Positions 11,237-16,553 of a stretch of DNA of 52,609 nt are shown one piece after another (within the stretch, counting starts at the first letter, position 1; each line of letters starts with the position of its first letter). The position numbers were made by a program, and so were the translations under genes. Below the pieces are notes generated by a model that was not told where the DNA came from, ran no database searches, and saw only the letters and a program-made list of their open reading frames with translations. Source of the DNA: Deltaproteobacteria bacterium (GTDB lineage: Bacteria; Desulfobacterota; Binatia; DP-6); assembly GCA_005879585.1 (NCBI GenBank), contig VBKG01000337.1, positions 1-52,609 of the forward strand, read 5' to 3'.

Positions 11237-12589
11237 ATGGGGCTCACCATTGTTCACAAGAGTGACCTCTGGACGCGGAAGCGAGACCCGCGCGTGGCTC
11301 TCGTGCTGGCCGGCGGGGCCGTCACGGGCGGGGCCTACAAGCTCGGCGGGCTGAAGGCGCTCGACGACTTCCTCGTCAATCGCAAGACCAACGACTTCGA
11401 CATCTACGTCGGCCTGTCGGCTGGCGCGTTCCTCGCCGCGCCGCTCGCCGGCGGCGTCAACCCGGTCGAGATGCTGCGCTCGATCGACGGGACGTCAGAG
11501 GACTTCAGTCAGCTCACGGCGCTCGAGTTCTACCGGCTGAACGTCTCCGAGTTCGCGCGCAAGCCCCTCGAGTTCGTGGTCGACCTCGCCACGTACGTTC
11601 CCGGTCTCCTCTACGGCTTCATCTCGCGGACACCCGACCTGGTTCGTCAGCTGCGGGAGCCGCTCGAGCAGTGTCGCCGCGAGCCGTCGCTCACGAACCT
11701 GATCGAGTGCGTGAAGCCGCTCATCGACACCATCGGCTCCGCGCGCGAGTTCCCCTTCCCGCTCTCGTACCTTCCCTCGGGTCTCTTCGACAACTCGTCG
11801 CTCGAGCGCTACCTCCGCCAGAACATCGAGCGGCGCGGACTCTCGAACGACTTCCGGGTGCTGCGCCGGCTGCGCGGCGTCGAGCTCTACATCGTCGCCA
11901 TGAACCTCGATACGGCCGAGCGGGTCGTGTTCGGCCACGACGAGGACACCTCGCTCACCATTTCCGAAGCGGTCCAGGCGTCGACGGCGCTGCCGGGCTT
12001 CTACAAGCCGGCGCGCATCAAAGGCGTCGACTACGTCGACGGGGGCGTGCGCCGGACGGCGAACCTCGACACCGCCATCGAGCACGGCGCCGACCTCGTC
12101 ATCTGTTACAACCCGTTTCGCCCGTTCTCGAACCGGGTGTCCCGCCGCTACATCCCCGAGCGCCACGAGTACGTGATCGACGGCAAGCCGCTGGCCGACC
12201 AGGGCATGCTCGTCGTCCTCAACCAGGTGCTGCGCACGCTCCTTCACTCGCGCCTCCAGCTCGGCATCCGCCAGTACCAGGACGACCCGAACTTCCAGGG
12301 CGACATCATCCTCATCGAGCCTGCCGAGACGGACCTCGCGTTCTTCAAGATGGCCGCCCTCGACTTCTGGGCGAGCCGCAGCGCCGGCGCGCACGGCTAC
12401 CTCTCGGTCACGCAGTCGATCGAGACGCACTACGAGCTGATGCGCCAGATCCTCCAGACCTACGGCATCCAGATGACCCGCCGCGACGTGCGCGAAGGCC
12501 TCGAGCGGCTCACCCGCGCCGAGTCGAGCGACTCGCCCGACGACATCCTCATGCGGGACGTCCCGAAGCGCAGCCTGCACGTCGCCTGA
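11237..12589 (+). CDS. Patatin-like phospholipase
   Basis: Predicted acyl hydrolase of the patatin family, 450 residues. Oxyanion loop LAGGAVTGGAYKLGG at residues 24-38, nucleophile elbow GLSAG with Ser61, and the catalytic Asp in DGG (D268, YVDGGVRR) form the Ser-Asp dyad. After the catalytic domain an extension of about 170 residues has no motif I recognise. No signal peptide is visible, so it is likely cytoplasmic or membrane-associated from the inside. ATG 11237 is preceded by the strong ribosome site GAGGGG. A sigma-54 promoter match lies upstream, suggesting activator-dependent expression. Substrate unknown (phospholipid, lysophospholipid or other ester). Confidence 0.88.
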   Translation: MGLTIVHKSDLWTRKRDPRVALVLAGGAVTGGAYKLGGLKALDDFLVNRKTNDFDIYVGLSAGAFLAAPLAGGVNPVEMLRSIDGTSEDFSQLTALEFYRLNVSEFARKPLEFVVDLATYVPGLLYGFISRTPDLVRQLREPLEQCRREPSLTNLIECVKPLIDTIGSAREFPFPLSYLPSGLFDNSSLERYLRQNIERRGLSNDFRVLRRLRGVELYIVAMNLDTAERVVFGHDEDTSLTISEAVQASTALPGFYKPARIKGVDYVDGGVRRTANLDTAIEHGADLVICYNPFRPFSNRVSRRYIPERHEYVIDGKPLADQGMLVVLNQVLRTLLHSRLQLGIRQYQDDPNFQGDIILIEPAETDLAFFKMAALDFWASRSAGAHGYLSVTQSIETHYELMRQILQTYGIQMTRRDVREGLERLTRAESSDSPDDILMRDVPKRSLHVA

Positions 12590-14912: not shown

Positions 14913-15704
14913 CTACGGCTCGGCGTCCTCGTCGCGCTCGGCCGTCGCCTCCGCGTAGCGCTCGAGCAAGGGCTCGCCGAGCCGCTGGACGAGCCAGCGG
15001 TGGACGAGCCCGACACAGCGCTGCCACGCCGGCCCGGCGAGCAGCCAGTGGCCCGCGCCGTCGAGCGCCTCGTGCTGCGCGCCGATCGTGCGCGCGAGAG
15101 CCGCGGCGGCCGGTGCCGGGAGGAACGGGTCGCGGTCGCCGGCCACGACGAGCGTCGGCACGCCGGCAACGGGCGACGGCGCCAGCCGCGGTCGGACGAC
15201 GTCCCGCACGACGCGGGCGCTGTCGGGAGCGAGGGCGGAGACCACGGCACTCCGGAGTGGCGGCGGCAGCTCCCCGCAGAGCGGCGCGGCGGCGGCGAGC
15301 GTCGGGGGCGGCACGGCGCGGCCGAGGAGGAGCGGCACGACGGTGGCCGGGCGCATGGCCAGCGCGCGCGCCGGCGCGCTGCCCGGGACGACGGGCGCGA
15401 GAAGCACGACGGCAGCCGCCGGGGCGCGGGCGGCGGCCGCGAGCGCGACGACGCCGCCCACGTCGTGACCGATGAGCACAGGCGGCGCGGACAGCGCGGC
15501 TGCATGCGCGGCCACCGCCGCGGCCCGCGTCGCGATGCCACCGTCGACCGCGCGAACGTCGAGGAGCTGGCTCTCCCAGCCCCGATGCGCCAGGTAGCTG
15601 GCGAAGCCGCGCCACACGAGCGGCGCCGACCAGAGGCCCGGGATGCAGAGCAGCGACGTCGTGTAGCGCGCGCTCTCGGCGCGGACGATGTCGGCGCTCA
15701 GCAT
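14913..15704 (-). CDS. Alpha/beta-fold hydrolase
   Basis: 263 residues. The nucleophile elbow is GHDVGG (residues 79-84), with Asp81 at the nucleophile position as in haloalkane dehalogenases and epoxide hydrolases rather than Ser. An acid loop AGDRDPFLP and the catalytic His in DGAGHWLL follow at the expected places. The segment between (about 110-175) is a short cap rich in Ala, Pro and Leu. Substrate unknown. ATG at 15704; a terminator of the upstream gene separates it from the lysine-rich mini-gene. A Ser-less esterase or a dehalogenase/epoxide hydrolase-like role is possible. Confidence 0.8.
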   Translation of the reverse strand: MLSADIVRAESARYTTSLLCIPGLWSAPLVWRGFASYLAHRGWESQLLDVRAVDGGIATRAAAVAAHAAALSAPPVLIGHDVGGVVALAAAARAPAAAVVLLAPVVPGSAPARALAMRPATVVPLLLGRAVPPPTLAAAAPLCGELPPPLRSAVVSALAPDSARVVRDVVRPRLAPSPVAGVPTLVVAGDRDPFLPAPAAAALARTIGAQHEALDGAGHWLLAGPAWQRCVGLVHRWLVQRLGEPLLERYAEATAERDEDAEP

Positions 15705-15728
15705 GCGCGTCGCTCCATCAGTCCAACG

Positions 15729-15759
15729 AAAAAGGCCCTTCGTGACTCGAAGGGCCTTT
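15729..15759 (-). terminator. Strong intrinsic terminator
   Basis: Perfect 12-base-pair stem (15731-15742 with 15748-15759), five-base loop, and a T5 run on the minus strand (bases 15733-15729). It ends the transcript of the lysine-rich mini-gene before the alpha/beta hydrolase start at 15704. The stem arm is AAAGGCCCTTCG. Confidence 0.85.
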
Positions 15760-15783
15760 CCGTGGGCCCGTCGACGGGGCCCA

Positions 15784-16008
15784 TTCTCGCCTGAGACGAA
15801 TCTTTTGTCTTGGTGTTACGTGCCTAGCAACTGCGGATCGGAACCAACCAACGTCGTCACTACTTCTTCTTGGACCCCTTCTTCTTCGAGGGGGCCTTTT
15901 TCTTCGCCTTGCTCTTCTTCTTCGCCTTCTTCGCCTTCTTCTTTGCCGCCATAGTTACCTCCTGTTGGAATCGAGAATGTTCCCTTCCGTCCCTCTCTCA
16001 GGCGAGAA
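15784..16008. repeat. 13-base inverted repeat flanking the lysine-rich gene
   Basis: TTCTCGCCTGAGA at 15784-15796 and its exact reverse complement TCTCAGGCGAGAA at 15996-16008. One copy lies in the 3' untranslated part and the other in the 5' leader of the same predicted transcript, so the two ends of the message could pair. Confidence 0.6.
15860..15952 (-). CDS. 30-residue lysine-rich basic protein
   Basis: ATG 15952 to TAG 15860 encodes 30 residues beginning MAAKKKAKKAKKKSKAKKK and ending in GSKKK; 18 are Lys and 6 Ala, with no acidic residue. The ATG is preceded by a full AGGAGGT ribosome site five bases away, by a sigma70 promoter at 16041-16070, and followed by a strong terminator, so it is a complete monocistronic unit. 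The composition resembles histone-H1-like or AlgP-type lysine/alanine tails, suggesting binding of DNA, RNA or another polyanion; this role is inference. The opposite strand frame (Phe-rich) is a shadow. Confidence 0.75.
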   Translation of the reverse strand: MAAKKKAKKAKKKSKAKKKAPSKKKGSKKK

Positions 16009-16040
16009 CCCCACTCCACACCTCAACCACCACGGCACGG

Positions 16041-16070
16041 AGTATAGAGGTGCGTCCGCGCAAGAGTCAA
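16041..16070 (-). promoter_or_regulatory. Strong sigma70 promoter of the lysine-rich mini-gene
   Basis: Minus-strand TTGACT (16070-16065), 18 bases, TATACT (16046-16041). An A/T tract at 16088-16103 lies upstream in UP-element position. Predicted start near 16034 gives a leader of about 80 bases. Confidence 0.7.
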
Positions 16071-16247
16071 TAGACGACCGGCGTTTTGGAAATTTTTTTT
16101 TAAACCGGCGCGACCCGATCTGCCCTCGGCGATCGGCTCCCTAGAATGACGTTCCCCTTCATCCGACGCCGATGAGTAACAGATCGTTTTACTCCTCCGC
16201 CGTTGCCTCCGTGCACGCTTTCCGTTAGGCACTTTCGCGGAGTGCGC

Positions 16248-16553
16248 ATGGCGGGTGGACGGCTGCTGAGCATGGTGCTGCTGCTCGCCAGCGTGACGGT
16301 GACGGCGTCGGCGCTCGTCGGCGAGCACGGGATCCCGCACCTCATCGGACTCCGCGCCGAGCGCGAGGATCTCGGGCGAACCGCGTTCGCGTTGCTCGAA
16401 GAGAACGCGCGGCTCCGCGACGAGCTCCGCCGTCTCAAGAAGGACGACCTCTATCTCGAGCAGCTCGCGCGCCGCCAGCTCGGACTCGTGAAGCCGGGAG
16501 AGATCGTCTACCGGTTCCGTCGCTCGACGCGCGACGGACGGCCGAGGCGTTAG
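16248..16553 (+). CDS. FtsB/DivIC-like septum formation protein
   Basis: 101 residues: an N-terminal membrane helix (about residues 5-25, LLSMVLLLASVTVTASALVG) followed by a coiled coil (LRAEREDLGRTAFALLEENA) and the conserved ending YLEQLARRQLGLVKPGEIVY. This is the layout of FtsB/DivIC, bitopic division proteins that bind FtsL and FtsQ. ATG 16248 is preceded by GGAG. It stands alone between the lysine-rich gene (divergent) and the gcvH-like gene (convergent, two-base gap). Membership is clear from architecture; exact orthology with ftsB is likely but not proved. Confidence 0.8.
   Translation: MAGGRLLSMVLLLASVTVTASALVGEHGIPHLIGLRAEREDLGRTAFALLEENARLRDELRRLKKDDLYLEQLARRQLGLVKPGEIVYRFRRSTRDGRPRR

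What the first reader, a model, noticed from the sequence alone, without database searches (positions are those of the whole stretch)
15729..16070. Complete transcription unit for a 30-residue lysine-rich protein
Strong promoter (TTGACT-18-TATACT), AGGAGGT ribosome site, a 30-codon ORF with 60% Lys, and a 12-bp-stem terminator stand together. Such quality of signals suggests high expression of a tiny basic protein, probably a nucleic-acid-binding or polyanion-binding factor. It is too short for most annotation pipelines and is likely overlooked in relatives.
Basis: partly seen in the sequence, partly recalled or inferred. Interest (0 to 1): 0.65.

Follow-up and report, generated by a model that had tools for sequence, protein, structure and literature searches.

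The report
Lysine mini-protein gene, end-paired mRNA
The window holds a small, strongly signalled gene for a 30-residue, mostly-lysine protein; relatives of it (12 to 138 residues) turned up in 60 genomes of 12 bacterial families, where selection keeps both the protein and the ability of the two ends of its messenger RNA to pair, so this is a real but unnamed gene family that probably makes a tiny binder of DNA, RNA or another negatively charged polymer.

Summary
On the minus strand a TTGACT-18-TATACT promoter, AGGAGGT site, 30-codon ORF (MAAKKKAKKAKKKSKAKKKAPSKKKGSKKK, 18 Lys) and 12-bp-stem terminator stand together. It is a real gene: 6 of 7 family genomes hold it, and 60 units were collected from 12 families of the phylum, all Lys-rich, 12-138 aa. 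Close relatives differ mostly at synonymous sites (codon positions 1/2/3: 70/34/259). No Pfam, NCBIfam or Rfam family matched.

In relatives the two arms change together; own partners pair better than swapped ones in all 100,000 permutations. The mRNA is therefore probably closed 5' to 3' around the ORF, recalling hok and aapA toxin mRNAs, though this peptide is a hydrophilic polycation and no antisense promoter was seen.

Best explanation: a highly expressed, histone-H1-tail-like mini-polycation made from an end-paired, stable mRNA. Coding and covariation are shown; expression, stability and binding are inferred, as no RNA or protein data exist here.

The parts
16083..16105 (-). AT-rich stretch just upstream of the promoter (TTTAAAAAAAAATTTCCAAAACG), UP-element-like; related A/T tracts (TTTCCAAAATGNCATT) stand at the same place in most families
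   Evidence: function inferred from resemblance only
16041..16070 (-). sigma-70-type promoter TTGACT-18-TATACT
   Evidence: 18-bp spacer in nearly all relatives
16009..16034 (-). G-rich GTGG-repeat start of the leader; transcription start near 16034 is inferred from the -10
15996..16008 (-). 5' arm of the long-range helix, TTCTCGCCTGAGA
15957..15963 (-). Shine-Dalgarno site AGGAGGT
   Evidence: conserved in relatives
15860..15952 (-). ORF of 30 codons, MAAKKKAKKAKKKSKAKKKAPSKKKGSKKK
15817..15828 (-). 3'UTR motif GCTAGGCACGTA, nearly invariant in the window's family, role unknown
15784..15796 (-). 3' arm of the long-range helix, TCTCAGGCGAGAA
15763..15783 (-). GC-rich hairpin between 3' arm and terminator (TGGGCCCCGTCGACGGGCCCA); pairs covary in the family
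15729..15759 (-). intrinsic terminator, 12-bp stem then T run
14913..15704 (-). downstream alpha/beta hydrolase gene (Abhydrolase_1/6), a neighbour in many but not all families; not needed by the unit

Best explanation
A stand-alone gene for a translated, disordered, lysine-rich mini-protein that acts as a diffusible polycation, like the tail of histone H1 or AlgP, and binds a polyanion (DNA, RNA or polyphosphate; which one is not known). A strong sigma-70 promoter with an UP-like element makes much mRNA. The mRNA ends pair with each other across the ORF next to a hairpin and terminator, giving a closed, probably long-lived message; in several families the leader arm can also fold locally before the 3' end is made, so the pairing may also time translation. 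Shown here: the gene is conserved and coding, and the end pairing covaries. Inferred: high expression, mRNA stability, polyanion binding.
For: 60 units in 12 families; third-position bias 70/34/259 and 217 of 294 differing codons synonymous; near-consensus promoter with an 18-bp spacer almost throughout; end pairing beyond shuffles over whole UTRs and in arm swapping, 0 of 100,000; single copy by pattern in the window's genome; length varies tenfold while Lys content stays high, as expected for a disordered polycation rather than a folded domain; AlgP's Lys-rich tail binds DNA and positions polyphosphate granules (PMC9239181).
Against: No transcript, protein or binding data. Peptides of 12-17 aa could be short-lived in a cell. 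The UTR arms are kept at least as carefully as peptide length, so the RNA may have a job of its own. The arm windows used were chosen by eye around the helix.
Confidence: 0.6

Rival explanations
1. The mRNA is a hok/aapA-like folding switch: a local leader hairpin forms during transcription, then the 5'-3' helix locks the full-length mRNA in an inert state until 3' processing lets a peptide be made that is harmful when unrestrained.
For: Covarying long-distance helix between leader and pre-terminator segment; the same leader arm can form a local hairpin in f17 (CGCTC-GCCT-GAGCG), f28 (GGTAATC-AAA-GATTACC) and f47; in f1 and f14 predicted SD access rises when the 3'UTR is removed.
Against: Over all 60 units SD access is 0.36 full-length against 0.40 truncated, p 0.06; peptide not hydrophobic; no promoter-like site on the opposite strand; single-copy chromosomal gene kept at one locus with housekeeping neighbours.
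Confidence: 0.15
2. The RNA itself is the main product, a structured regulatory RNA, and translation of the short ORF only tunes or times its folding.
For: UTR architecture is conserved over families whose ORFs differ tenfold in length; strong promoter and terminator as for an abundant sRNA; possible crossing second helix in f16/f14 and f6/f7.
Against: Very strong selection on the encoded residues; apart from the arms there is no sequence motif shared by all families; no Rfam match.
Confidence: 0.13
3. A small ribosome-associated basic peptide, comparable with eL41 or bTHX, fixed in an rRNA pocket.
For: Tiny, very basic, strong promoter. The comparison with eL41 and bTHX is from memory.
Against: A bound pocket peptide should keep length and register; here length runs from 12 to 138 aa and the sequence is repetitive.
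Confidence: 0.06
4. A lysine-sensing leader peptide that attenuates the downstream hydrolase gene.
For: The hydrolase follows directly in many families.
Against: The unit persists without it in f9 and part of f16; the gene is an alpha/beta hydrolase, not a lysine gene; peptides up to 138 aa are long for a leader.
Confidence: 0.04

Closest known systems
Histone-H1-like lysine-rich bacterial proteins (AlgP and PhaF C-terminal domains, chlamydial Hc2)
   Same: Lys/Ala-rich, repetitive, disordered by composition, length varies by repeats; f13 members hold APAK repeats
   Different: 12-40 aa in most families with no other domain (AlgP has a 124-aa helical N-terminal part, PMC9239181); no family match by profile; own promoter, terminator and end-paired mRNA
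hok and aapA type I toxin mRNAs
   Same: Small ORF in a stand-alone transcript; long-distance pairing of 5' and 3' mRNA ends; possible metastable leader hairpin (PMC6733600)
   Different: Peptide is a hydrophilic polycation, no antisense RNA signal found, SD not generally hidden by the pairing
eL41 / bTHX small basic ribosomal proteins (from memory)
   Same: Very small and very basic
   Different: This family varies tenfold in length and has no fixed register

Membership tests
[quoted passage not shown]
Type I toxin-antitoxin mRNA (hok, aapA) | SD hidden in the full-length mRNA and freed by 3' truncation | tested here: inconclusive
   0.36 against 0.40 unpaired, p 0.06; clear only in f1 and f14
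Type I toxin-antitoxin mRNA (hok, aapA) | small hydrophobic membrane-active peptide | tested here: not met
   peptides are mostly Lys and Ala, no hydrophobic stretch
Type I toxin-antitoxin mRNA (hok, aapA) | antisense RNA encoded opposite or near the mRNA | tested here: inconclusive
   no promoter-like site on the + strand in 15600-16250; a consensus scan cannot exclude one
Histone-H1-like lysine-rich proteins | Lys/Ala/Pro-rich low-complexity sequence | tested here: met
   Pro is frequent only in some families
Histone-H1-like lysine-rich proteins | match to a curated Pfam or NCBIfam model | tested here: not met
   no match for three peptides; very short queries have little power
Histone-H1-like lysine-rich proteins | binding to DNA or polyphosphate | not testable with these tools
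Amino-acid attenuator leader peptide | downstream gene for biosynthesis or uptake of that amino acid, always linked | tested here: not met
   alpha/beta hydrolase, linkage lost in f9 and part of f16
Known structured RNA (Rfam 15) | match at the family's gathering score | tested here: not met
   only sub-threshold chance matches

The most novel reading that the evidence does not exclude
An unnamed, phylum-wide class of mRNA in which a near-pure polylysine peptide, down to 12-13 residues, is made from a message whose two ends form a covarying helix (in some families perhaps a pseudoknot with the ORF in its loop), so that refolding during or after transcription times the release of a polycation.
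Probability: 0.25. Interest if true: 0.82.

Novelty: new variant of a known kind. Interest (0 to 1): 0.62.

Why it matters
This is a gene family too small and too low in complexity for the usual annotation and homology tools; it came to light through its conserved promoter and mRNA. If the inferences hold, these bacteria spend a very strong promoter on a 12-30-residue polycation, which bears on how bacteria compact DNA or handle other polyanions without a folded protein, and it would extend 5'-3' closed mRNAs from toxin genes to a gene that looks like housekeeping. It is directly testable, since arms, start codon and peptide can be changed separately.

Tried and rejected
Rfam searches of the window unit and 12 relatives gave only sub-threshold hits. 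Pfam and NCBIfam were empty for the peptides. A permissive gapped helix test had no power and was replaced by an ungapped one and by arm swapping. The exact 3'UTR pattern is confined to the window's family; in named genomes it hit one soil MAG and a Hymenobacter contig with no Lys-rich ORF in the stretch read, taken as chance. The first phylum pattern showed no unit outside the class, as it demanded GCCTG at one spacing; the promoter pattern then found two other classes. SD hiding by the end pairing was tested and is not general. An exact pattern in viral contigs found nothing. Weak model hits without a Lys-rich ORF (e.g. L155, L159, L166, L172) were dropped. No paper on this gene was found with the terms tried.

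Full report
What is there. On the minus strand of the window, between a gcvH/ftsB neighbourhood and an alpha/beta hydrolase gene, lies a compact transcription unit: TTGACT-18-TATACT (16070-16041), a leader of about 80 nt, AGGAGGT (15963-15957), a 30-codon ORF (15952-15860) for MAAKKKAKKAKKKSKAKKKAPSKKKGSKKK, a 3'UTR of about 100 nt, and a 12-bp-stem terminator (15759-15729). The promoter is the only consensus-like one in 650 bp, against 0.0 +/- 0.2 in shuffles.

It is a gene. The DNA search gave a match in all 7 family genomes, but the G002 match is a 27-nt piece with no Lys-rich ORF, so 6 of 7 carry the unit; G002 is 80% complete. A model of the family's 3'UTR (R1) and one from several families (R2) found it in other families of the class, and a pattern of promoter, SD and Lys-rich start found more, including two other classes of the phylum. 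After reading each locus, 60 units in 12 families were kept: f1 6, f4 1, f5 5, f6 1, f7 2, f9 7, f13 7, f14 1, f16 20, f17 6, f28 3, f47 1.

It is coding. In 16 sets of close relatives, differences fall at codon positions 1/2/3 as 70/34/259, and 217 of 294 differing codons are synonymous (pairs within a set are not independent). In sets f16d and f16e, with peptides of 15 and 13 aa, all 45 differences are synonymous. In AAA/AAG codons most random changes would alter the residue, so selection holds the peptide. Most families use mainly AAG; f16 and f14 use both codons.

The two ends of the mRNA pair. In the window, 15996-16008 and 15784-15796 are a perfect 13-nt inverted repeat 199 nt apart, and RNAalifold puts this helix in the family consensus. 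Two tests were made on the wider set. (a) Whole leader without the SD against the 3'UTR before the terminator, ungapped helices: sum 1656 over 60 units against 1180 +/- 22, maximum 1243, in 100 dinucleotide shuffles of the leaders; 33 of 60 units reach p 0.05 alone. Related units are not independent. (b) Arm swapping among 15 lineages: own -421.0, permuted -295.4 +/- 18.3 kcal/mol, 0 of 100,000; one per family, 12 families, -330.4 against -243.9 +/- 17.0, 0 of 100,000. Earlier sets gave 0 of 20,000, 0 of 50,000 and, for one per family in 10 families, 9 of 50,000. The arm windows in (b) were picked by eye around the helix, which favours own pairs; but the 3' arm lies at the same place throughout, just before the last hairpins. 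Telling cases are f5 GTGTCTGTG/CACAGACAC beside GTGCCTGTG/CACAGGCAC; f9 TCGTCTGAGAGGA/TCCTCTCAGACGA; f4 CTCGTGCGGAGGGA/TCCCTTCGCACGAG; f6 GTCTGGGG and ATGGGG with CCCCAGAC and CCCCAT; f28 17 bp; f47 16 bp.

Other RNA features. A second complementary pair lies upstream of both arms in f16/f14 (GGGAGGGTTT/AAACCCTCC) and in f6/f7 (GGTGGGTGGC/GCCATTCACT). In this order the two helices would cross, a pseudoknot with the ORF in a loop. The pair hardly varies within families, so it stays a suggestion. In thermodynamic folding 44 of 54 units have at least 8 expected leader-3'UTR pairs, but this counts any such pairs, not only the arms. SD access does not depend consistently on the 3'UTR.

Surroundings. 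The hydrolase follows in f1, f4, f13, f17, in G077 of f7, in G067 of f5 and in several f16 members; in f6 it was recognised by eye from the translation. Enolase-like ORFs stand upstream in f5 and f9, again read by eye. As the unit lives on without the hydrolase in f9 and part of f16, it is not bound to it. By pattern the window's genome holds a single such gene.

How it most likely works. Inference: strong, perhaps growth-linked transcription; a closed, stable message; translation of a disordered polycation that coats or bridges a polyanion. AlgP is the nearest tested analogue of composition, with DNA binding and polyphosphate granules (PMC9239181). The hok/aapA analogy concerns the fold of the message (PMC6733600); membership fails on the peptide.

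Limits. There are no expression data. The census has unknown sensitivity: no unit was found in f2, f3, f8, f10, f11, f12 or f15, and outside the class only an even sample of the phylum was scanned. Other phyla were not searched.

Noticed in passing
L061:1323-1442: A K/R-rich ORF (MRKVHRVKKNRLAVRKNGFRLRIARCYACTQNPGRLKAR) with an SD and a double hairpin after it, a model R1 match at E 1.4e-6 in G126, which also has an ordinary unit (L151).
   Followed up: no
L222, L219, L220, L216 leaders: The leader arm of the long-range helix can also form a local hairpin (GGTAATC-AAA-GATTACC in f28; GGTAAC..GTTACC in f47), mutually exclusive with the long-range helix.
   Followed up: partly
L058-L060, L062, L063, L073, 60-200 bp upstream of the promoter: In f17 further conserved sites stand upstream of the promoter (TTTAAAACGCTCTGCTACTC and GTGAACGCGATTTTAA); similar ones occur in f13. 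They may be regulator sites or a divergent promoter.
   Followed up: no
G083:C22:4483-4581 and G083:C34:40021-40122: Two model R1 matches in one f9 genome; the second may be a further copy of the unit or an ordinary terminator.
   Followed up: no
window 11237-12589; L066 and L141: A patatin-like ORF (by eye) lies 3.3 kb from the unit in the window, and similar ORFs lie near the unit in f9 and f5 beside an enolase-like gene, so the wider neighbourhood may be old.
   Followed up: no
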